Origin: Phycisphaera sp.
GTDB lineage: Bacteria; Planctomycetota; Phycisphaerae; Phycisphaerales; SM1A02
NCBI GenBank assembly: GCA_016124975.1
Contig: WGMP01000026.1
Span: forward strand, 1 to 64,000
Length of the DNA: 64,000 nucleotides
Direction of reading: 5' to 3'
Within the stretch, counting starts at the first letter, position 1; each line of letters opens with the position of its first letter. Below the pieces are notes generated by a model, which searched no databases, was not told where the DNA came from, and was given only the letters and a program-made list of their open reading frames with translations. A program made the position numbers and the translations under genes. Shown piece after piece: positions 9,991 through 17,523 of the stretch.

Positions 9991-10041
9991 GCGCTCGCCG
10001 CCGCGGCGCGGACTCGCTGTGTCGGTGCGCCGCGCTACAAG

Positions 10042-10431
10042 GTGATCAACCTGCGCCGCGAGGCCGCCAACTCCTGTCTGCCGAGCCCCGACATCAATCT
10101 CGACGTCGATGTTTGGTTCTGGCAGCGATGCGATCCCATGACCGGCATGGAGAATGCGCGCGTCGATTTCTCCGGCGCCCACGATCTCTTCCCGGCGTAC
10201 GAGCTGGTCGTGCAGGAGGAGCGCCCAGCCGATGTCAGGCGAGGCTGCCTCTACACATGTCCGCCGATCGGCCGACCAGAGGATCTCATTGCAGGTCCCG
10301 GCTGGTGGCAGCCTGGAGCCCGCATCACGTTTGGTCCGCCGCCAATGCATGCCTCTCACCTCATCACCGGGTGCCCACAATCTGTTCCGACCGCGCAGTA
10401 CTGGAAGCCGCTGAGTGCGTACTTCGATTGA
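10042..10431 (+). CDS. Hypothetical protein, possibly a gene remnant
   Basis: 129 residues from a GTG start, in the same frame as glmS and 51 bases after its stop. The composition is protein-like (Trp-, Pro- and Cys-containing, with a block SGAHDLFPAYELVV), unlike the Arg/Ala-rich shadow frames elsewhere in the window. No signal peptide or Shine-Dalgarno sequence is obvious and no family was recognised with confidence. The block with HD-x-FPAYE resembles a beta-sandwich motif seen at the C-termini of some secreted and toxin-like proteins, but that is only an impression. It could be a short real gene or the 3' remains of a longer one. Confidence 0.4.
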   Translation: MINLRREAANSCLPSPDINLDVDVWFWQRCDPMTGMENARVDFSGAHDLFPAYELVVQEERPADVRRGCLYTCPPIGRPEDLIAGPGWWQPGARITFGPPPMHASHLITGCPQSVPTAQYWKPLSAYFD

Positions 10432-10584
10432 CTCGGCGTGGGCCGACCGCCGATGCCGATGTGCGGTCTGCGCGAGTGGTCGATGCGCCTGAGGCTCGAC
10501 CTATGATGTCCCCAGTGAACATGGTGCTGCGATCGTCGGGTACTCCAGCGCTCTGTTCGCCTTTCTTCAAGTCCCATCGGAAGG

Positions 10585-12039
10585 ATGCCTCGACACATGC
10601 ATCGGTATCTCGCCTCTTCTGCGCCGAGCGTACGGTCTCTCGCCGCGGCGCTCGGGCTCGTCGCGGGCTTCACGCTCTGTACCCCTGCGCTTCAGGCCAG
10701 CGACGACGACCCCGCGGTCACTCGGGCTGTCGCCGCGCTCCTCAGGGGCGAGAAGGACGCGGTCGAGGAAGCGTGGCGCCTCCCGCCGCATCAGATCGAT
10801 CTGGTGGCCACTCGGCTTGTCGAGCGGTGGAAGCGTGACCCGCACGGCATCGCGCTGCAGCGTGGGGCCGACATGCAGGAGCGCGCAGTAGGGGGTCCTC
10901 TCTTTGCGCTTCGGGCTCTCACACAGGATCGTCCGCCTCTGCCCGGAGGCGCTCCGAGGATCCTTGTGGACGAGGTCAGTCGGCTTGTGCTCCAGCCGCC
11001 AGATGCACACGCGTCCGAGTGGGCCATCGGTGACTATCACAAGCAGTCGAAGCTCACGCTCGAGATCGCATGCGCCGCAGACGGCCCGGGCCGCATGGAG
11101 GAGCGCTTCGGCACCCTGGCACCGCTTCCGTCGCTCGCCTACGCGAGTGGCATGTTGGAAGCTGCGCAAATGGCGATGAAGGAGGGCGTACGGGGCTGGA
11201 CCAAGGCAGACGCCATGAAGGTCCTCGACCGGGCCTCCGACGAAGTGATCTGGTTTCTGTCGGAGCCTGACGCCGCGCAGGTGCTTCGCACGCAGCCCGT
11301 GCTCGACGGGATCACTGGAATGATCGGATTGGTGGCGATGGAGTCGGATTTCCCCGAGGATCAGCGCTTCGCGGCGGCGCGGTGTTTTGCAGAGATCGCG
11401 GATGCATACTCGACGCTTGCGGCGCGCGAGGCAGGCGTACCACCGCGCTTCGAGGGGGCCGTGGTGATCTCTCTGGCGGTCCTGAGCGGGTACGAGTGGG
11501 AGAGTGGCATGATCTTCCTTCCCGAGCCAAAGTCGGTGGAAGCCTCGATCCATCGGCTGGCCGAGTTCGACGGCGAGCGCCTCTCCGAGCGGACTCTTGG
11601 AGCCATCGTCACGCTGCTCGACTCCGCGTCGAGACAACTTGGTGTCTTTGCTTCGATGCGCGAGCAGTATGCGGCGCGGAAGATCGGAGCGGAGAAGGAG
11701 CCCGGCGTCGATGGGGTCTGCGACGCCCTTGCCGCGCTCGTGCTCCGGATCCACGCCATTCCTCCGTCGCACGCGGCCTGGAGCGAGGAGAACCGATGCC
11801 TCTGGATCGAAGCCGTCGACCGCGATCGCGGTGGCGAGCACGAGGCGAAGTGCGCCGCGATCGCCGCGGCATGGGCGACGGCCCGCGCGGGAATCGACGC
11901 GGAGTGGCGCGAGGCCTGCACCAAGCGCGCCGAGACCGACTCGGCGGAGCGCGAGACGCGCCGCGCGGATCGCCAGGCGCGGCGCGAGGCGTGGGAAGCA
12001 CGCCTTCGCGAAGGCGCCGCGAAGCCGAAGGACTCCTGA
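10585..12039 (+). CDS. Exported protein of unknown function
   Basis: 484 residues with a clear Sec signal peptide (cleavage likely after ...PALQA, about residue 38). The mature part is mostly helical and acidic. The last about 60 residues are strongly charged, Glu/Arg-rich and likely a coiled coil (AERETRRADRQARREAWEAR). No catalytic motif or named domain was recognised. Two starts are possible: ATG at 10585, which has GGAAGG too close to it, and ATG at 10597, which has the same purine tract at a better distance; both keep the signal peptide. It lies just upstream of the first cassette leader and may be part of the same accessory region. Confidence 0.7.
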   Translation: MPRHMHRYLASSAPSVRSLAAALGLVAGFTLCTPALQASDDDPAVTRAVAALLRGEKDAVEEAWRLPPHQIDLVATRLVERWKRDPHGIALQRGADMQERAVGGPLFALRALTQDRPPLPGGAPRILVDEVSRLVLQPPDAHASEWAIGDYHKQSKLTLEIACAADGPGRMEERFGTLAPLPSLAYASGMLEAAQMAMKEGVRGWTKADAMKVLDRASDEVIWFLSEPDAAQVLRTQPVLDGITGMIGLVAMESDFPEDQRFAAARCFAEIADAYSTLAAREAGVPPRFEGAVVISLAVLSGYEWESGMIFLPEPKSVEASIHRLAEFDGERLSERTLGAIVTLLDSASRQLGVFASMREQYAARKIGAEKEPGVDGVCDALAALVLRIHAIPPSHAAWSEENRCLWIEAVDRDRGGEHEAKCAAIAAAWATARAGIDAEWREACTKRAETDSAERETRRADRQARREAWEARLREGAAKPKDS

Positions 12040-12143
12040 TACGCCCGCCCGCCGTGCCGCTGACCGTCGCGATGTCCGCGCCACCCGAGCGGGGAGGGGT
12101 CAGGCGGGATTCGAGATATTCAACAGGCAGCGGTACAAACATC

Positions 12144-12171
12144 TTGCAAAGGAGCTACCGCGCGGTACATT
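12144..12171 (+). promoter_or_regulatory. Candidate promoter of cassette 1
   Basis: TTGCAA (12144-12149), a 16-bp spacer and TACATT (12166-12171) make a plausible -35/-10 pair. The leader that is conserved between the two cassettes, GTGACAGTTCGCGGCCCGCC, begins directly after the -10. The second cassette has the same geometry with TTGACT-16-TAACTT at 15577-15604, which strengthens both calls. Predicted leader length is about 95 nt. Confidence 0.5.
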
Positions 12172-12211
12172 GTGACAGTTCGCGGCCCGCCGTTGCGGCC
12201 GCAGCGCATGT

Positions 12212-12267
12212 CCCAGCCTCGAGGTCCCAGCCTCGAGGTCCCAGCCTCGAGGTCCCAGCCTCGAGGT
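12212..12267 (+). repeat. 14-bp leader repeat, four copies, carrying Shine-Dalgarno cores
   Basis: CCCAGCCTCGAGGT is repeated four times without error. Each copy contains GAGGT, a Shine-Dalgarno core, inside the self-complementary octamer CCTCGAGG. The last GAGGT ends seven bases before the ATG at 12275. Because the octamer is its own reverse complement, adjacent copies can pair as an eight-base stem with a six-base loop and would then hide the ribosome-binding core. The same repeat has two copies in front of the second cassette (15645-15672). Confidence 0.9.
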
Positions 12268-12274
12268 CCTGACG

Positions 12275-13462
12275 ATGCGACAGACACTCTCGCGATACCT
12301 GACGACGCTCCTGTGCATGCTTGCGGCAGGAACTTGGATCTTGCCCGTCCACACGCTCGCAGCGTCGGCGCCGGCGCCACTGCCGATCATGGCGAGCGAG
12401 GCCGAAGATGACATCGTCACGATGTCCGCGATCGCAGCGGAGCTGAGTGAGTGGATTGGCTCGGGCGCCTTCCAGACTGGGGCCCGAAGCGACTCAAGCG
12501 TCGATCTCGATGGTGATGGGGTGACGGACACGGTTCTCGCATCGAGCGTGGACCTTCTCGGCGAAGGTGGCTCGATCGCGGTCATGGATGGCGCAACCGG
12601 AGCGCTGCGGTTCACGCTGGGATCGCCGATAGGGGAGCGGGGTTTCGGATCAAAGGTTGCGCTGGTCGGCGACTGTGATGCCGATGGATGTCGGGACATC
12701 GTTGTTGCGTCGGGACTGCTGCGCGCGGGTGAGATTGAGATTCGGTATCGGTTGGTGAGCGGGATGTCCGGGAAGCTCATCGCGGTGAAGACCGACACGC
12801 TGCGCATTGATGCCTCTGTCGACGCCGAGGTGGGACAGCCCCTGTCCGTCGCGGGCGATGCAAACGACGATGGTGAGGTCGATGCATCGGATATCGCGCT
12901 TGCGATAGGGGAACTCGGTGTTCCAACGGCCGCACGGCCGGCGCTGGACCTCGACTGTGACGGTCAGGTGACCGTTGCGGATGTGGTGGGAGTCGCGGAA
13001 AGGGCCGGAACCGTGATCCAAACCGAGGATTCGGGATTCTGGTCGCTGGCAGAGACGCAGAGTTTCCACGCGGTCGACGCTGAGGGCGATAGCGAGGGCT
13101 TTGCCGGGCTTTCGTGGGCCTGCTGGGCGAGGGCCGTGGGTCTGGCGATCACAGTCGGCATTTTGATCGGAGAGATTGCGGCCTGCACGGCGCTGTGCAC
13201 TCCCCCGACTCCCGCATGCGTGGCTGCTGCAAACGCCTGCGCTCTGCTTATCGTTTGCACGCTTGCGAATGCCGTGCTCAAGCTCGCTCGATTCCTCATG
13301 GAGTGTGTTGGCGATCTGCAACTCCCGATGGGCTTGGAGGTGTTCTTTGAACTCGCCGACACGCTGACCGAAGCGTGCGCCTATGGTGCAGGATTCGTCG
13401 GAGGGCTGAAAGTCATCAAGAAGGCTTTGGAAATCCTCCGAGATGTGCATCGAAACCTGTGA
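12275..13462 (+). CDS. Cassette 1 secreted protein: FG-GAP/dockerin-like region and 8-Cys hydrophobic tail
   Basis: 395 residues. The signal peptide (about 1-30, MRQTLSRYLTTLLCMLAAGT...) matches that of the protein at 15680 in 28 of 30 residues. The middle has an FG-GAP-like calcium loop (DLDGDGVTDTV) and a dockerin-like pair of EF-hand loops (GDANDDGEVDASDIA, DLDCDGQVTVADV). From about residue 285 the composition changes to a hydrophobic, Ala-rich tail with eight cysteines (in WAC, AAC, ALC, PAC, NAC, IVC, MEC, EAC). This tail could be membrane-inserting or a compact disulfide-bonded peptide domain. Function is unknown. Two small two-helix membrane proteins follow at 13513 and 13918. The start is fixed by the GAGGT core seven bases upstream and by conservation with the second cassette. 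Confidence 0.75.
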   Translation: MRQTLSRYLTTLLCMLAAGTWILPVHTLAASAPAPLPIMASEAEDDIVTMSAIAAELSEWIGSGAFQTGARSDSSVDLDGDGVTDTVLASSVDLLGEGGSIAVMDGATGALRFTLGSPIGERGFGSKVALVGDCDADGCRDIVVASGLLRAGEIEIRYRLVSGMSGKLIAVKTDTLRIDASVDAEVGQPLSVAGDANDDGEVDASDIALAIGELGVPTAARPALDLDCDGQVTVADVVGVAERAGTVIQTEDSGFWSLAETQSFHAVDAEGDSEGFAGLSWACWARAVGLAITVGILIGEIAACTALCTPPTPACVAAANACALLIVCTLANAVLKLARFLMECVGDLQLPMGLEVFFELADTLTEACAYGAGFVGGLKVIKKALEILRDVHRNL

Positions 13463-13512
13463 ACGATAGGCGCTCTTCGCCCGTACGGGGCCCCGCTTGA
13501 AGAGGTACGATT

Positions 13513-13695
13513 TTGGCCAGCCAATTGTCGTGGTTCATGTTCTCCGCATTCATATGGGCCGTGATGGTCTTCGTGAGGTTCGACCGGTACCGCTCAAGGC
13601 CATGGAGGATATTCTCATGGACTATGCTCCTCTTGAGCATTGTGGCGGTGGTCGTTGCGATCCTCGAGAAGGTAGGCGCGCTGGGTCCGTTCTAG
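13513..13695 (+). CDS. Small two-helix membrane protein (cassette 1)
   Basis: 60 residues from a TTG start preceded at the right distance by AGAGGT. Two hydrophobic helices (about 4-20 and 36-55) are separated by a basic loop (RFDRYRSRPWR), so both termini may face the same side. It begins 50 bp after the secreted eight-Cys protein, on the same strand. The same arrangement, a small two-helix protein just downstream, is seen in the second cassette, which suggests a functional partner such as an immunity or anchoring protein (inference). The TAG stop lies inside the left end of the inserted MITE (13692-13858), at its CTAG target. Confidence 0.6.
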   Translation: MASQLSWFMFSAFIWAVMVFVRFDRYRSRPWRIFSWTMLLLSIVAVVVAILEKVGALGPF

Positions 13696-13858
13696 GTTCT
13701 GTCTGACGGATCCCCGAAGACCAAAGAAGCGCGCGGCGCCCGGATGGCAAGGAGGCGAGACGAAGCTGTATCCGCAGCGATACAGCGAGTTGAAGCCGAC
13801 GCCGCCAGCCGGGATGCCGCGCGATTCGACGTCCGGGGATCCGTCAGACAGAACCTAG
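13692..13858. mobile_element. 167-bp MITE with perfect 25-bp terminal inverted repeats
   Basis: The 25 bases at 13692-13716 are the exact reverse complement of 13834-13858. Both ends read CTAGGTTCTGTCTGACGGAT inward. CTAG at each edge with TA shared is what IS630/Tc1-type transposases leave, since they insert at CTAG/TA and duplicate TA. The core (about 117 bp) has no credible gene. The insertion sits exactly at the stop codon of the upstream small gene. A third copy of the end is at 34765-34786. No IS630 transposase is in this window, so the element would be mobilised in trans. Confidence 0.8.
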
Positions 13859-13917
13859 CTGCCTCGAAGTCATGGCCAGACACATGACCGTGCCCGCCCT
13901 CTCACGAGGATGCCCGC

Positions 13918-14109
13918 ATGTCCGATCTTGACCGATGGATGAGCGTCGTCGTGCTCGGGATCCTGCTCCTGATCCCGTCGCGCGGGTGGATCGAGAGGCG
14001 GATTCGCTCGGAACGCGCGCGACGCATCGTGCGGATCGGCACGCTGCTGCTCGCGCTTGCAGCGGCGGCGGTGTGGCTCGGGCGACTCGGCATGTACCTC
14101 ATGGCGTAG
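13918..14109 (+). CDS. Second small two-helix membrane protein (cassette 1)
   Basis: 63 residues from an ATG preceded by GAGGA at a good distance. Helix one is about 8-20 (MSVVVLGILLLIP), then a very basic loop with several Arg residues (about 22-40), then helix two (about 41-60). It resembles the 13513 and 16557 products in size and topology rather than in sequence. It lies just after the MITE, which may have pushed it away from the cassette it belonged to. Function unknown; possible immunity or membrane partner of the secreted eight-Cys protein. Confidence 0.55.
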   Translation: MSDLDRWMSVVVLGILLLIPSRGWIERRIRSERARRIVRIGTLLLALAAAAVWLGRLGMYLMA

Positions 14110-14143
14110 CGGATCGACCTCGTGGTCCGGCGAATCATGGGAT

Positions 14144-14156
14144 GCGGCTTCGCCGT
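14144..14156 (+). other. Hairpin at the 3' end of cassette 1
   Basis: GCGGC-TTC-GCCGT, a short stable stem, lies in the 20-base context ATGCGGCTTCGCCGTCTCGC. The same context with one change occurs at 16812-16831 after the small gene of cassette 2. It may be a terminator or the shared right edge of the duplicated cassette. There is no T-run. Confidence 0.35.
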
Positions 14157-14164
14157 CTCGCGCT

Positions 14165-14220
14165 GTTTGCCTCACCTTGTTTGCCTCACCTTGTTTGCCT
14201 CGCCTTGTTTGCCTCGCCTT
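14165..14220. repeat. 14-bp tandem repeat, four copies
   Basis: GTTTGCCTCACCTT is repeated four times (copies 3 and 4 read GTTTGCCTCGCCTT), ending directly at the left end of the ISL3 element. The period of 14 equals that of the leader repeats at 12212 and 15645 and of the array before trxA, although the sequences differ. No coding meaning is visible. Confidence 0.85.
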
Positions 14221-14227
14221 GTTTTCC

Positions 14228-15546
14228 GGCGCTTCAGGAAATCGTGTGGGTTGAAGCCGGCCTCGGATAGAGATCCAGCCCCCCGAGGTGGAAGAGGATC
14301 GCGTTGCGGAAGCGCGCTCGGTTTCGGTACCCGCACGCCATCCGCTTGATCCGCTGGATCCGCGCGTTCATCGACTCCGCAGCCGCGTTCGTCGTCCGCA
14401 GCACCACCGCGTTCAGGATCCCCTCGAGGTGGGTCCTGACCATCCGCGCCACCCGCACCATCGGCCCGAGCCTGCTCTGCGAGGCGAGCGCCGCCCACGC
14501 GAGCCACGCCTTCCGCGCCCACGCGATGCTGACGTAGTCCCACAGCCCCGAGGCCGACTCCTTCAGCGCCCACGCGCGGCCCGTCCGCGCGCAGAGGTCC
14601 TTGAGCTGCGCAAGCAGCGTCCTGCGCGCGGGCTTCATCGACGCCGGGCTCTCGAGCCACAGGTACTTCGTCCCCGTCAGGGTCCCGTCGCCCTCGGCGC
14701 GCAGCCGCTTGTGCTCCTGCTTGCGCACCGCGTTCGCCGCGTCGCCGAGGTGCCGAGCCACGTGGAAGCGGTCGAAGCACACCCGCGCCTTCGGAAGCCA
14801 CTTCGCCGCCGCGTCGATGTACGGCCGCCACATGTCCATCGCCACGACCTCGACAGCCTCGCGCGATTCCGCCGGAATCGCCGCGAAATGCGCGTCGACC
14901 GCATCCCTCGTCCGCCCGTCGACGACCGAGAGCACGCGCTTCCCGTCGAGGTCCGTCACCACCGTCACGTACTCGTGCCGCTTCTGGAACGACGTCTCGT
15001 CGAGGCCGATCCGCGCCGGACACGACTCGTCGCGCCGAGCGAGCCCGCGGGCGACCGCGCGGGCCATGATGCCGTCGACCTCGTCCCACGAGAGACCGAG
15101 CCGGCGCGCGACCGCCGCGAAGCTCGCCTCCTTCAGCCAGTCGATCACGACCGCCTCGAGGAGCGCGGTGAAGCGCGAGCCGGGCTCCGCCCACGGCGTC
15201 GCCGCCTGCGAGACGCCGTGCTCGGCGCACTCGACGCGCGGCACGTCGGCCGTCAGGTGGGTCTGGAACTGGCAGGTGTCGAGGTGCCGCCAGCGGCGGC
15301 GGCGGGCGTCGTAGCCCGCGCAGGGCTTGCCGCACTTCGGGCAGCTCGCCTCGCCGCGGTGCTCGACGAAGACCTCGACCGTGCCGGCCGAGACGTCGAG
15401 GACCACGTCGGTGACGTGCCAGGGTGCGGAGATGCCGAGGATCTTGGCGTAGAGCTCGCGGTCGCGCATGGCGCCAAGGTACGGGCCGAGAAGGCCACGG
15501 CGAAGGCCGTCAGGGCGGGGTTACCCACACGAATTCCCGAAGACCC
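14228..15546 (-). mobile_element. ISL3-family insertion sequence
   Basis: About 1.32 kb. The ends at 14228-14251 and 15523-15546 are imperfect inverted repeats (20 of 24 bases match), each with the inner block TCGTGTGGGT. Reading outward the right end has the CCCACACGAATTCCCGAAGA sequence typical of ISL3 termini. The transposase stop codon falls inside the left inverted repeat. No 8-bp target duplication was found by eye, so the copy may be old or one flank has changed. The element lies between the two cassettes and ends 31 bp before the promoter of cassette 2. Confidence 0.85.
14234..15469 (-). CDS. ISL3-family transposase
   Basis: 411 residues, full length for the family. An N-terminal zinc-ribbon-like region has cysteines in CPKCGKPC and ECAEHG. 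A helix-turn-helix-like region follows (FAAVARRLGLSWDEVDGIM). The DDE catalytic domain shows the expected acidic residues: Asp in RIGLDETSF, Asp in VAMDMWRPY and Glu in NAAAESMNARIQ. The frame is uninterrupted, so the enzyme may be active. The ATG at 15469 lies about 54 bp inside the right end. Confidence 0.93.
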   Translation of the reverse strand: MRDRELYAKILGISAPWHVTDVVLDVSAGTVEVFVEHRGEASCPKCGKPCAGYDARRRRWRHLDTCQFQTHLTADVPRVECAEHGVSQAATPWAEPGSRFTALLEAVVIDWLKEASFAAVARRLGLSWDEVDGIMARAVARGLARRDESCPARIGLDETSFQKRHEYVTVVTDLDGKRVLSVVDGRTRDAVDAHFAAIPAESREAVEVVAMDMWRPYIDAAAKWLPKARVCFDRFHVARHLGDAANAVRKQEHKRLRAEGDGTLTGTKYLWLESPASMKPARRTLLAQLKDLCARTGRAWALKESASGLWDYVSIAWARKAWLAWAALASQSRLGPMVRVARMVRTHLEGILNAVVLRTTNAAAESMNARIQRIKRMACGYRNRARFRNAILFHLGGLDLYPRPASTHTIS

Positions 15547-15576
15547 AGAAATTCAATGCGAAGCGGTGTGCAGGCC

Positions 15577-15604
15577 TTGACTACGCACGGCGAAGAAGTA
15601 ACTT
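15577..15604 (+). promoter_or_regulatory. Candidate promoter of cassette 2
   Basis: TTGACT (15577-15582), a 16-bp spacer and TAACTT (15599-15604), followed at once by the leader GTGACAGTTCGCGGCCCGCC that is shared with cassette 1. The -35 lies only 30 bp from the ISL3 right end, so the IS did not disrupt it. Confidence 0.5.
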
Positions 15605-15644
15605 GTGACAGTTCGCGGCCCGCCGTCGTGGCCGCAGCGCATGT

Positions 15645-15672
15645 CCCAGCCTCGAGGTCCCAGCCTCGAGGT
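15645..15672 (+). repeat. 14-bp leader repeat, two copies
   Basis: Two copies of CCCAGCCTCGAGGT, identical to the repeat unit in front of cassette 1 but half as many. The last GAGGT is again seven bases before the ATG (15680). An ATG at 15641, just before the repeats, is in frame with the main gene here. In cassette 1, with four copies, the equivalent ATG at 12208 is out of frame. Fourteen is not a multiple of three, so copy number sets this frame. Confidence 0.9.
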
Positions 15673-15679
15673 CCTGACG

Positions 15680-16546
15680 ATGCGACACACGCTCTCGCGA
15701 TACCTGATGACGCTCCTGTGCATGCTTGCAGCAGGAACCTGGATCCTGCCTGTCCATACGCTTGCGGCGCCGGTACCGATGCCCTTGGCCCAGGATGGCG
15801 ATGAAGGCGTATTGGACCTTGACCCGACTTCCGCCATCGCCGTTGAGAGCGTTGCGGGAGTGGTTCTCCTCCCGAGAGAGATGGCTCCCAGCGAGCCAGC
15901 GCCGGGCATTGAAGTGATTCTGTTGCTCGACTCGCAGGCGGTTCCCGAGGAGTGCCTGGCGCTGCTCGGCCTTGCGACCCCAGAGGGTGCTGGGTCGGCC
16001 AACGCGCCTGTCGAGGTGCGTGTCGAGTTGCACTCAGTCGCTGTTGCATTTGTGCGCAAGGGTGAGTCCACCATCCGCTTTGGATTCGGACTTCGGTCGG
16101 ACGTCGTGGTCACGGTGCAGTCACAGGCTTCCGGGACCTTGGCACAGGCCGAATCATTTCAACTCGTGTCCGAGACGGCAAGCGCAGGAGAAGCCGTCGA
16201 TGGGTCCCTGCAACTGTGGAGTCAGGTCTCGCAGGCAGCCCCTGCACCTGCGCCGCCGTTTCCCTACTACTCGACCTGCGTGACGCTTTGCCTGATGGAA
16301 GTCCACAATCAGTGGTGGGGGGTGGTCATGGACTGCATCGCCTACTCCGGCATTGGTGCCGCCCTCGTCTCGGGGGCGGCCGTGCTCGCTTGCCTGCTTA
16401 CTGGTCCCGGTTGGCTTGCGTGCGTTACGGCGTTGCTCACAGGAATAGGTATCGTCACTGGGATGGTCTGGGCTTCCTGTCTCGCGAGCTACCTCGCAGC
16501 GATGGCCCTTGCGATTCCTGTATGCACTGCAGGATGCGCGTTGTAG
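15680..16546 (+). CDS. Cassette 2 secreted protein with 8-Cys hydrophobic tail
   Basis: 288 residues. The signal peptide is nearly identical to that of the 12275 product: two replacements and eight silent changes over 30 codons. The mature part (about 31-195) has no calcium-binding loops and looks beta-rich with many Glu and Val residues; no family was recognised. The last about 100 residues are strongly hydrophobic and again hold exactly eight cysteines (STC, TLC, MDC, LAC, LAC, ASC, PVC, AGC), ending CTAGCAL. The gene ends ten bases before a small two-helix membrane protein gene with a perfect ribosome-binding site. A start at 15605 or 15641 is possible in frame, but conservation and the GAGGT position favour 15680. 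Confidence 0.75.
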   Translation: MRHTLSRYLMTLLCMLAAGTWILPVHTLAAPVPMPLAQDGDEGVLDLDPTSAIAVESVAGVVLLPREMAPSEPAPGIEVILLLDSQAVPEECLALLGLATPEGAGSANAPVEVRVELHSVAVAFVRKGESTIRFGFGLRSDVVVTVQSQASGTLAQAESFQLVSETASAGEAVDGSLQLWSQVSQAAPAPAPPFPYYSTCVTLCLMEVHNQWWGVVMDCIAYSGIGAALVSGAAVLACLLTGPGWLACVTALLTGIGIVTGMVWASCLASYLAAMALAIPVCTAGCAL

Positions 16547-16556
16547 GAGGTGTGCC

Positions 16557-16775
16557 ATGGAGGTGATGAAGCCGTTTCCAACGATGACGCCGCTTCAGAC
16601 GATCTTTCTCATTCTGTTCTCGTTGGTTCTCTGGCAGGCGTTTCTGGTCCTGCTCATCAAGACCCGAAAGATTGACTCGCGGTTGCAGTCGCCGTTCCGA
16701 GCCATCATCTTCATTCAGGCGGTGGGCGTGCTGATGCTCTTGGTCGACGCCACTCACCGCTGGTTGAACCAGTGA
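16557..16775 (+). CDS. Small two-helix membrane protein (cassette 2)
   Basis: 72 residues. The ATG is preceded by a perfect AGGAGGT six bases upstream, and the gene starts only ten bases after the stop of the secreted eight-Cys protein, so the two are co-transcribed and possibly coupled. Two hydrophobic helices (about 14-32 and 45-62) are joined by a short basic loop (KTRKIDSRLQ). It does not resemble the cassette 1 small proteins in sequence, only in topology and position. This is what one expects of cognate partner or immunity proteins, but that role is inference. Confidence 0.65.
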   Translation: MEVMKPFPTMTPLQTIFLILFSLVLWQAFLVLLIKTRKIDSRLQSPFRAIIFIQAVGVLMLLVDATHRWLNQ

Positions 16776-16813
16776 CCGCAGCGCGTCTGAGGTGCATTCG
16801 ATGACCGGCCTAT

Positions 16814-16886
16814 GCGGCTTCGCCGCCTCGCCTGCAGGCCTCGCCACGCATGCCGCACGCGCGGCCGACCTCGGGCGAAGCCCGGG
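16814..16886. terminator. Hairpins between convergent genes
   Basis: Two stems lie in the 130-bp gap between the cassette 2 membrane protein and the convergent DUF2238 gene. GCGGC-TTC-GCCGC is at 16814-16826. CTCGGGC-GAA-GCCCGGG at 16870-16886 has seven pairs, one of them G-U. Neither has a T-tract. The position between convergent stops suggests a bidirectional terminator; the first stem is shared with the end of cassette 1. Confidence 0.35.
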
Positions 16887-16905
16887 CGGCGAGTGTCGCC
16901 AACCG

Positions 16906-17523
16906 TCACCCTTGCGCGATCTGCCTGTCCTGCATCGGGCCGAGCATGGCGACGGCCATCGCTGCGCCGACCATGCAGAACAGCATGTCCCACTGCGCGT
17001 CCCAGACATCGCCTTGCGCGCCGAGGAAGTTGATGCTGTCTTCGCCGAGGAGGAGCGCGCTTGCGAACTCGAGCAGCTCGAAGAGCGCGCTGAAGGCGAG
17101 GCACATGCCGACGACGACGACGGAGAGCCACCCGCGCCCCGCGACGATCGCCTTGCGGATGAAGACCTCGCGCCAGATGAGCGCTGGTGCGAAGCCCTGG
17201 ATGAAGTGGCCGAGCCTGTCGTAGTCGTTGCGCGGCCTCCCCATCCACTCCTGCACCCACAGTCCGATCGGGACATGCGCGTAGGTGTAGATGCCGCCGA
17301 CGACGAGGATGACGGCGTGCACGACGACGACCCAGAAGGTCACGCCCGTCGTCGGAAGGCGCCGAAGCCACAGCGCCCACATCGCGATCGCGGCCACGAC
17401 CCAGCAGACCTCGAGCGCCCAGGTGAGGCGGTCGAAGGGGTCGATACCGCTCCACACGAGGAAGAGCGCGAGGGCGACGACGACCCAGTCGCGCAGCGAG
17501 AGCGGGGGTGCGGCGGGCCTCAT
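16906..17523 (-). CDS. DUF2238 (YjdF-like) integral membrane protein
   Basis: 205 residues with about six membrane helices, matching the usual size of the DUF2238/YjdF family. Conserved loop blocks are visible: NDYDRLGHFIQGF after the second pair of helices, ALFELLEF, and DVWDAQWDM near the C-terminus. The His and acidic residues in these loops are family-typical; no reaction is established. It is convergent with cassette 2 and 31 bp downstream of the glutathione peroxidase stop on the same strand, so it may be in one transcript with it. Confidence 0.85.
   Translation of the reverse strand: MRPAAPPLSLRDWVVVALALFLVWSGIDPFDRLTWALEVCWVVAAIAMWALWLRRLPTTGVTFWVVVVHAVILVVGGIYTYAHVPIGLWVQEWMGRPRNDYDRLGHFIQGFAPALIWREVFIRKAIVAGRGWLSVVVVGMCLAFSALFELLEFASALLLGEDSINFLGAQGDVWDAQWDMLFCMVGAAMAVAMLGPMQDRQIAQG

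What the first reader, a model, noticed from the sequence alone, without database searches (positions are those of the whole stretch)
12144..16831. Two cassettes share promoter, leader, signal peptide and 3' hairpin but encode unrelated mature secreted proteins
Seen: the segments 12144-12364 and 15577-15770 match from the -35/-10 pair through the signal peptide. In 30 signal-peptide codons there are two replacements and eight silent changes, so the peptide is under purifying selection and is not just a recent copy. After the signal peptide the proteins share nothing until a hydrophobic eight-Cys tail. Both are followed by small two-helix membrane proteins and then a near-identical 20-base hairpin context (14142-14161, 16812-16831). 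Inference: a modular locus with fixed expression/export ends and an exchangeable core, as in polymorphic antagonism systems. No known family fits.
Basis: partly seen in the sequence, partly recalled or inferred. Interest (0 to 1): 0.82.

Follow-up and report, generated by a model that had tools for sequence, protein, structure and literature searches.

The report
Swappable exported proteins sharing one leader
A family of planctomycete bacteria carries interchangeable gene cassettes that export unrelated proteins through one shared, unusual signal peptide, several of them ending in a hairpin of two long helices whose cysteines sit at mirror-image positions, each usually next to its own membrane protein; they look like weapons with immunity partners or swappable surface proteins, but no function has been tested.

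Summary
Both cassettes share leader DNA, a 30-codon signal peptide (2 replacements, 8 silent changes) and a 3' 18-mer with only these two exact copies in the 3.6 Mb genome; the bodies are unrelated. The -35/-10 pair is only suggestive. The leader DNA does occur only twice in this genome, but a profile of the signal peptide finds 12 of 400 genomes of the order at E<=1e-3, all in the window's family (one probably chance). There it heads about six kinds of mature protein, and a membrane ORF follows 11 of 12 members with readable downstream DNA. New: B and two other kinds end in a long helical hairpin with palindromic cysteine spacing (e.g. 3-14-14-3-9-3-14-14-3), suggesting nested disulfides; A's tail does not. 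A carries a dockerin domain. The cassettes lie in a 6.9 kb insertion absent from 7 of 13 relatives, and two sister genomes carry different cassettes at one otherwise 99% identical locus. Best reading: accessory, exchangeable export cassettes, most likely membrane-active antagonism proteins with immunity partners. The architecture rests on sequence and a modest-confidence model; disulfides, toxicity and immunity are inferred.

The parts
12144..12171 (+). promoter-like pair of cassette A (TTGCAA-16-TACATT)
   Evidence: same geometry in B and in a copy in another genus; not found by the sigma-70 consensus scan
12170..12274 (+). 5' leader of A: hairpin starting at GTGACAGTTCGCGGC, then four copies of GTCCCAGCCTCGAG (12210-12265)
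   Evidence: blastn to B leader; RNA fold z -6.5; units located
12275..12364 (+). conserved signal peptide of A (core LAAGTWILP)
12275..13462 (+). protein A, 395 aa: signal peptide, FG-GAP-like 77-144 (below cut-off), Dockerin_1 193-238, Cys-rich hydrophobic tail 283-368
13121..13378 (+). hydrophobic eight-Cys tail of A; predicted helices 274-306 and 313-344 (single-sequence model, mean pLDDT 43)
13513..13695 (+). 60-aa two-helix membrane protein, partner of A (homologue, 60% over 50 aa, follows the A copy in genome G493)
13692..13858 (.). 167-bp element with 25-bp perfect inverted repeats at the end of the 60-aa ORF
13918..14109 (+). second small two-helix ORF, 63 aa, on the A side
14142..14161 (+). 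3' shared sequence of cassette A
14223..15551 (-). ISL3-type insertion sequence between the cassettes (transposase 14234-15469; 29-bp inverted repeats, 83%)
15577..15604 (+). promoter-like pair of cassette B (TTGACT-16-TAACTT)
15603..15679 (+). 5' leader of B, with two copies of GTCCCAGCCTCGAG (15643-15670)
15680..15769 (+). conserved signal peptide of B
15680..16546 (+). protein B, 288 aa: signal peptide, predicted beta-rich domain about 65-166, helical hairpin 196-287
16265..16540 (+). B tail: two helices of about 44 residues joined at TGPG; eight Cys at mirror-symmetric positions (3,14,18,9,18,14,3)
16557..16775 (+). 72-aa two-helix membrane protein, partner of B
16812..16831 (+). 3' shared sequence of cassette B
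9991..16905 (.). 6.9-kb insertion between glmS (ends 9990) and a DUF2238 gene (16906-17523); the two abut or lie within 94 bp in 7 of 13 relatives

Best explanation
The locus holds two members of an accessory family of export cassettes found, as far as searched, in one planctomycete family. A cassette is a leader, a signal peptide of a conserved type (core LAxG[TS]W[ILMV]xP in most; E[IM] for G[TS] in two), a mature protein whose N-terminal part differs between kinds, usually a hydrophobic Cys-rich C-terminal helical hairpin, and a membrane protein right downstream. Shown: the shared ends, the reuse of one signal peptide on unrelated bodies, mirror-symmetric cysteines in three kinds, the accessory insertion, and different cassettes at one locus in close relatives. 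Inferred: the hairpin folds outside the cytoplasm with nested disulfides, is delivered to and inserts in the envelope of a competing cell (pore or membrane disruption), the N-terminal domain sets delivery or target, the adjacent membrane protein protects the producer, and recombination in the leader and signal peptide swaps the bodies.
For: Signal peptide: the 7-row model finds members it was not built from: G501, G502, G031 (E 3.3e-9 to 4.3e-9), G493 at two places (6.7e-13, which is a near copy of A, and 1.3e-5) and G392 (3.5e-4). The 12-row model gives 12 of 400 genomes of the order at E<=1e-3, all 12 in one family. Mature parts fall into six kinds by all-against-all blastp; the only cross-kind links below E 0.01 are G031 with G437 and G493b in the tail, 3e-6 and 1e-3. 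Exact Cys mirror pairs: B 4 of 4, G392 and L091 5 of 5, G437 7 of 7, G493b 6, G031 5, each 0 of 3000 random placements; G030 4 pairs, 15 of 3000. With one residue of slack the random counts are B 9, G392 3, L091 4, G437 0, G493b 8, G031 0, G030 318 of 3000. The mirrored pair that B lacks is present on both arms in G392, L091 and G030, as expected if the two bond to each other. AF2 places two helices of about 44 residues with the turn at the symmetry centre (mean pLDDT 56.7, tail blocks from residue 201 at 66-77). Membrane ORFs follow 11 of 12 readable members (topology by eye outside the window). Partner type tracks tail type in two cases: A with G493a (60%), G493b with G437 (30% over 224 aa, E 9e-22). 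Insertion absent in 7 of 13 relatives. G493 and G502 are 99.0% identical over 4052 bp up to the leader, then carry different cassettes.
Against: No toxin, immunity or defence family above cut-off: Pfam and NCBIfam for A, B and eight relatives, PADLOC for A, B, G493b, G031 and two small ORFs. A's tail has no mirror symmetry (2 pairs; 2580 of 3000 random placements do as well), nor has G009's A-type (1 pair, 3000 of 3000); the B-type of G013 is weak (4 pairs, 68 of 3000). G493b has lost one Cys whose mirror partner stays, against strict pairing. The tails of the B-type are homologues, so the symmetry is about three independent cases at most. G007 has no small membrane ORF next to it and the B-type G030 lacks the signal-peptide motif. 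A carries a dockerin, which fits a surface protein at least as well. The leader shared by G493, G501 and G502 is a dispersed repeat of about 140 bp standing before other secreted-protein genes too. Several copies are broken (G493a, G006, G002, second G009 copy): decay or assembly error. The hairpin could anchor the producer's own protein instead of attacking another cell.
Confidence: 0.4

Rival explanations
1. Swappable surface-display proteins: the hydrophobic hairpin holds the exported protein in the producer's own membrane, the small membrane protein is an assembly or anchoring partner, and the variable N-terminal domain (dockerin and FG-GAP-like in A, beta-rich in B) binds surfaces, sugars or partners; variation serves phage escape or niche change.
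For: Dockerin_1 above cut-off and FG-GAP-like stretch below it in A; hydrophobic tails; accessory insertion; no toxin domain.
Against: Partner membrane proteins differ with tail type, which a general anchor would not need; the mirrored Cys of G031 span 227 residues around a hydrophobic centre, long for a mere anchor (inference).
Confidence: 0.3
2. No joint function: an export-ready promoter, leader and signal peptide was duplicated and fused by recombination to unrelated accessory genes in a family rich in repeats; the cassette look comes from repeat-driven shuffling.
For: The g40 leader is a dispersed repeat before several unrelated secreted proteins; A and B tails are not homologous; insertion sequence and small inverted-repeat element at the locus.
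Against: Signal-peptide core kept across genera on different bodies, dN/dS about 0.1 between A and B; repeated coupling to membrane ORFs; B-type proteins keep signal peptide, hairpin and membrane ORF together in three further genomes (G013, G392, G383 = L091).
Confidence: 0.2
3. Hairpin tails are precursors of processed peptide bacteriocins: a protease releases the C-terminal Cys-rich hairpin as a small stable peptide, the N-terminal part acting as chaperone or immunity, as recalled for halocin C8.
For: C-terminal position, small size and Cys pattern of the B-type tail; CX3C-X9-CX3C core in G392, L091 and G030 as in alpha-hairpinin peptides.
Against: No protease gene or cleavage site was noticed (not searched for systematically); the halocin resemblance is recalled, and no library match exists above cut-off.
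Confidence: 0.1

Closest known systems
[quoted passage not shown] 2012, PMC3482391; start of abstract and passages seen)
   Same: Constant export part, variable module, adjacent partner gene, exchange by recombination.
   Different: There the C-terminal toxin tip varies behind a constant trafficking part; here only the leader and signal peptide are constant and nearly the whole mature protein varies. No known toxin or immunity domain found.
SitA/SitI cassettes of myxobacteria (Vassallo et al. 2017, PMC5562445; passages seen)
   Same: Secreted proteins with a common signal-sequence type and low similarity otherwise, each with a cognate downstream gene, several cassettes per genome.
   Different: SitA are lipoproteins with predicted nuclease or tRNase C-terminal domains; A and B show no lipobox and no nuclease domain; the partners here are membrane proteins.
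alpha-Hairpinin antimicrobial peptides of plants (PMC11591084; passages seen)
   Same: CX3C-Xn-CX3C helix-loop-helix held by two disulfides; the inner part of the G392, L091 and G030 tails is CX3C-X9-CX3C.
   Different: Those are short plant peptides with 4 or 6 Cys; here the hairpin is longer, hydrophobic, with 8 to 14 Cys, bacterial, and part of a larger protein. B itself lacks the inner pair.
YSIRK/GXXS signal peptides of Gram-positive surface proteins (PMC5962339, PMC11898559; search listing with start of abstract only)
   Same: A conserved motif inside the signal peptide shared by otherwise different exported proteins.
   Different: Different motif, phylum and envelope; no evidence here on where export happens.
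Halocin C8 of haloarchaea (recalled; listings, and the outline with abstract of PMC12893001, which is about another precursor)
   Same: Recalled: exported precursor with a C-terminal Cys-rich hydrophobic domain.
   Different: Recalled Cys arrangement differs; homology not tested.

Membership tests
Polymorphic toxin system | recognisable toxin domain at the C-terminus | tested here: not met
   nothing above cut-off in Pfam and NCBIfam for A, B and eight relatives except the dockerin of A, nothing in PADLOC for A, B, G493b, G031
Polymorphic toxin system | cognate immunity gene directly downstream | tested here: inconclusive
   membrane ORF in that place in 11 of 12 readable members; protection not testable here
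Polymorphic toxin system | constant N-terminal part joined to exchanged variable part | tested here: inconclusive
   one signal-peptide class on about six mature kinds and different cassettes at one locus, but the constant part is only the leader and signal peptide
SitA lipoprotein toxins | type II signal with lipobox | tested here: not met
   no lipobox Cys in the signal peptides of A and B, read by eye
alpha-Hairpinins | CX3C-X4-20-CX3C core | tested here: inconclusive
   met in G392, L091, G030 (CX3C-X9-CX3C) and G437, G493b (CX3C-X11-CX3C); not met in window protein B, which lacks the two inner Cys, nor in G031
alpha-Hairpinins | short free peptide with four or six Cys | tested here: not met
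   tails are C-terminal parts of 278-485-aa proteins with 8-14 Cys
Dockerin-bearing proteins (A only) | type I dockerin repeat | tested here: met
   PF00404, 25.5 bits against cut-off 22.9, residues 193-238
FG-GAP proteins (A only) | FG-GAP repeats above cut-off | tested here: not met
   PF13517 20 bits against cut-off 26.9, E 0.0011: below threshold
Halocin C8 | homology to the halC8 precursor and processing into two proteins | not tested
   no record fetched; resemblance recalled

The most novel reading that the evidence does not exclude
A new class of exported bacterial proteins: long helical hairpins with hydrophobic tips, clamped by a ladder of up to seven nested disulfides set at mirror-symmetric positions, most of them launched by a dedicated signal-peptide type and carried in swappable cassettes with cognate membrane proteins, acting as a previously undescribed kind of membrane-attacking antagonism system in planctomycetes.
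Probability: 0.3. Interest if true: 0.82.

Novelty: new variant of a known kind. Interest (0 to 1): 0.62.

Why it matters
If true, it gives planctomycetes an antagonism or surface-variation system of their own, and a sequence rule (palindromic cysteine spacing plus a signal-peptide motif) by which disulfide-laddered helical hairpins could be sought in unannotated genomes. It also shows a signal peptide that stays constant while the protein behind it is replaced, which makes the question of what a signal peptide does beyond export testable.

Tried and rejected
Leader DNA against plasmids and B against plasmids: no match. B profile in viral contigs: none. B profile in 347 genomes of the class: only the own genome convincingly; of three weak hits elsewhere I read two and saw no relative. 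Structural comparison of the B model with PDB: best E 0.035. Sequence search of PDB with the B profile: only immunoglobulin light chains at E 0.29-0.96 in the beta-rich part, taken as chance. Rfam on 11900-17000: two microRNA matches below threshold, rejected. Sub-threshold SLATT-type two-helix matches of the 60-aa ORF (Pfam E 0.1, NCBIfam 0.21, PADLOC 0.077): taken as hydrophobicity. Profile of the G493b/G437 tail in 397 genomes of the class: no match; the sample evidently lacked those two genomes, since both would match, so the empty answer shows little. The 3' hairpin as a terminator: rejected. The g40 leader as proof of family-specific exchange: weakened, because it is a dispersed repeat; integron attC sites considered by eye only and not supported. 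Weak signal-peptide hits: 35 of 181 genomes pass E<=0.05 but 12 pass 1e-3, and of these G001 (3.7e-4, frame with a stop) is probably chance; one hit at 1.5e-3 read in full looks like a transporter (L088). Literature on cysteine or disulfide ladders in helical hairpins, planctomycete bacteriocins and shared signal sequences: nothing matching among the rows listed; one search found no paper, the others list at most the top 6 to 15 rows of up to 659, in open-access papers only.
Full report
WHAT WAS CHECKED. The window is contig C44 of a 3.6 Mb, 59-contig genome. That it is a planctomycete is inferred: records of relatives are titled Planctomycetia and Planctomycetaceae. Protein A is 12275-13462, protein B 15680-16546. 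The shared stretch is real: blastn 12170-12435 against 15603-15840, E 1e-52. Of 30 signal-peptide codons 2 differ in residue and 8 silently, against about 65 replacement and 25 silent sites, p = 0.0009. Likeness fades out near residue 56 (10 of 26 identical over 31-56). The noncoding leader is more alike than the silent sites (3 of 43 bases differ), so it is itself constrained or was refreshed by recombination. The leaders fold well as RNA (z -6.5, 0 of 200 shuffles; z -3.1, 4 of 200); they differ in the number of a palindrome-bearing 14-bp unit, four in A and two in B. The 3' 18-mer has two exact sites in the whole genome, these two, and one site with a mismatch.

A has a dockerin type I domain (25.5 bits, cut-off 22.9) and a sub-threshold FG-GAP stretch. 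B matches no family above cut-off. An ISL3-type insertion sequence (about 14223-15551) and a 167-bp element with 25-bp perfect inverted repeats (13692-13858) lie in the locus.

RELATIVES. The leader-plus-signal DNA occurs only twice in the own genome. At protein level A has a nearly full-length homologue in G009 (35%) and a partial one in G006; B has homologues in G030 and G013, G392 and L091, which is the same contig as G383:C102 (L090 is likewise G392). Signal peptides of G006, G009 and G013 share a core LAxG[TS]W[IM]xP. A profile of seven (A4) searched in 181 genomes of the family gave 12 genomes at E<1e-3, one of them (G001) probably chance, and 35 at E<=0.05, the weaker ones mostly chance. 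A profile of twelve (A6) searched in 400 genomes of the order, drawn from a larger group, gave 12 genomes at E<=1e-3, all in the window's family; G448 at 6.5e-4 has a stop in frame and is probably chance. Across the twelve signal peptides aligned only M1, A17, W21, P24 and P35 are invariant; G392 and L091 have E[IM] where the others have G[TS]. The finds not in the A4 model (G493 twice, G501, G502, G031, G392) are the fair test of the motif; G493:C207 is a near copy of A and so not independent.

BODIES. All-against-all blastp of the mature parts gives six kinds: A-type, B-type, G007, G002/G502, G031, and G493b/G437; G031 touches G437 and G493b in the tail only (E 3e-6, 1e-3). Membrane ORFs directly downstream: 11 of 12 readable members (A, B, G493a, G006, G009, G013, G392, L091, G002, G031, G493b; not G007). 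G501 and G502 were left out of this count because their contigs end there. Helices of the ORFs outside the window were judged by eye. The partners of G493b and G437 are homologous (30% over 224 aa, E 9e-22), those of A and G493a too; partners of the B-type are related at best weakly (E 2e-5 to 5e-4 for some pairs with composition correction off, none for G013). G030 and G437 lack the signal-peptide motif in the frames read.

THE CYSTEINE PATTERN. In B-type tails the Cys spacings read the same in both directions: G392 and L091 3-14-14-3-9-3-14-14-3; B 3-14-18-9-18-14-3, the same pattern with one mirrored pair missing on both arms; G030 3-14-14-3-9-3-18-14-3, off by four in one arm. G437 reads 14-10-10-17-10-3-11-3-10-17-10-10-14, and G031 has 10-50-10-13-10-50-10 at its centre. 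Exact mirror pairs: B 4, G392 5, L091 5, G437 7, G493b 6, G031 5, each 0 of 3000 random placements; G030 4 (15 of 3000); G013 4 (68 of 3000); A 2 (2580 of 3000); G009's A-type 1 (3000 of 3000). With one residue of slack the random counts rise: B 9, G392 3, L091 4, G437 0, G493b 8, G031 0, G030 318, G013 91, A 1023, G009 2974 of 3000. G493b lacks one Cys of a pair that G437 has, while the mirror partner stays. Homologues are not independent, so this is at most three cases. A scan of ORFs of 90 aa or more in all sequence then held found 12 distinct ORFs with four or more mirrored pairs; the 7 that passed the chance filter are all members or homologues of this family. AF2 for B puts helices at 196-239 and 245-287, turning where the symmetry centre (243) lies, with modest confidence (mean pLDDT 56.7). 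For A, from a single sequence, helices 274-306 and 313-344 (mean pLDDT 43). The nested disulfide ladder is inferred from this.

ACCESSORY AND EXCHANGED. DUF2238 was found in 13 of 15 genus relatives. In 7 of them (G001, G004, G007, G008, G010, G013, G014) it abuts glmS or lies within 94 bp of it; in the other 6 (G002, G003, G005, G006, G012, G015) glmS was not in the stretch examined, so they say nothing. In the window the two are 6.9 kb apart, with a 484-aa gene that has no match in the 15 relatives and both cassettes between. In genus g40, G493 and G502 share 4052 bp at 99.0% identity up to the leader and then carry different cassettes. Replacement is the simple reading, but the leader there is a dispersed repeat found before other secreted-protein genes as well. 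A copy of cassette A with its leader (82% over 327 bp) sits in G493, another genus, with an internal deletion and frame break, which suggests transfer between genera.

FUNCTION. Shown: a conserved export-type signal, hydrophobic Cys-rich tails, adjacency to membrane ORFs, accessory status. Inferred: disulfide ladder, membrane insertion, antagonism, immunity. Swappable surface proteins are close behind, mainly because of the dockerin in A. I put antagonism at 0.4, surface display at 0.3, shuffling without joint function at 0.2, processed peptide precursor at 0.1.

COMPARISON WITH THE KNOWN. It works most like cassette systems such as Sit (PMC5562445, passages) and polymorphic toxins (PMC3482391, passages), but fails their toxin-domain and lipoprotein tests. 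The hairpin core of several relatives, not of B itself, matches the CX3C-Xn-CX3C rule of alpha-hairpinins (PMC11591084, passages), but not their size. The conserved signal-peptide core resembles in principle the YSIRK/GXXS signal (PMC5962339, search listing only). None of the families searched contains B or the eight relatives scanned.

Noticed in passing
window 13692-13858: 167-bp element with 25-bp perfect inverted repeats that begin and end in CTAG, at the stop of the 60-aa ORF; looks like a non-autonomous transposon.
   Followed up: partly
window 14223-15551: ISL3-type insertion sequence between the two cassettes.
   Followed up: partly
window 12210-12265 and 15643-15670: 14-bp units GTCCCAGCCTCGAG (neighbouring units form the palindrome CCTCGAGG) just before the start codon, four copies in A and two in B; could tune or sequester translation starts.
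   Followed up: partly
window 10585-12039: 484-aa protein in the same insertion, with a distant paralogue on C15 (27%) and no match in 15 genus relatives at E<=1e-10.
   Followed up: no
L103 2056-2218, 4277-4441, 8258-8369, 11413-11551; L105 4921-5067, 9098-9217, 9404-9511, 12641-12819, 15601-15767: Dispersed repeat of about 140 bp, mostly standing before transcription units, many for secreted proteins, in genus g40.
   Followed up: partly
L030 1672-2957, L054 2479-3380, L082 316-934, L027 3323-4504: Frame breaks, internal deletion or truncation in four family members; decay or assembly error cannot be told apart here.
   Followed up: partly
L106 6937-7444 and L107 9843-10346: About 500 bp 94% identical between contigs of two genera that both carry family members; probably a mobile element.
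   Followed up: no
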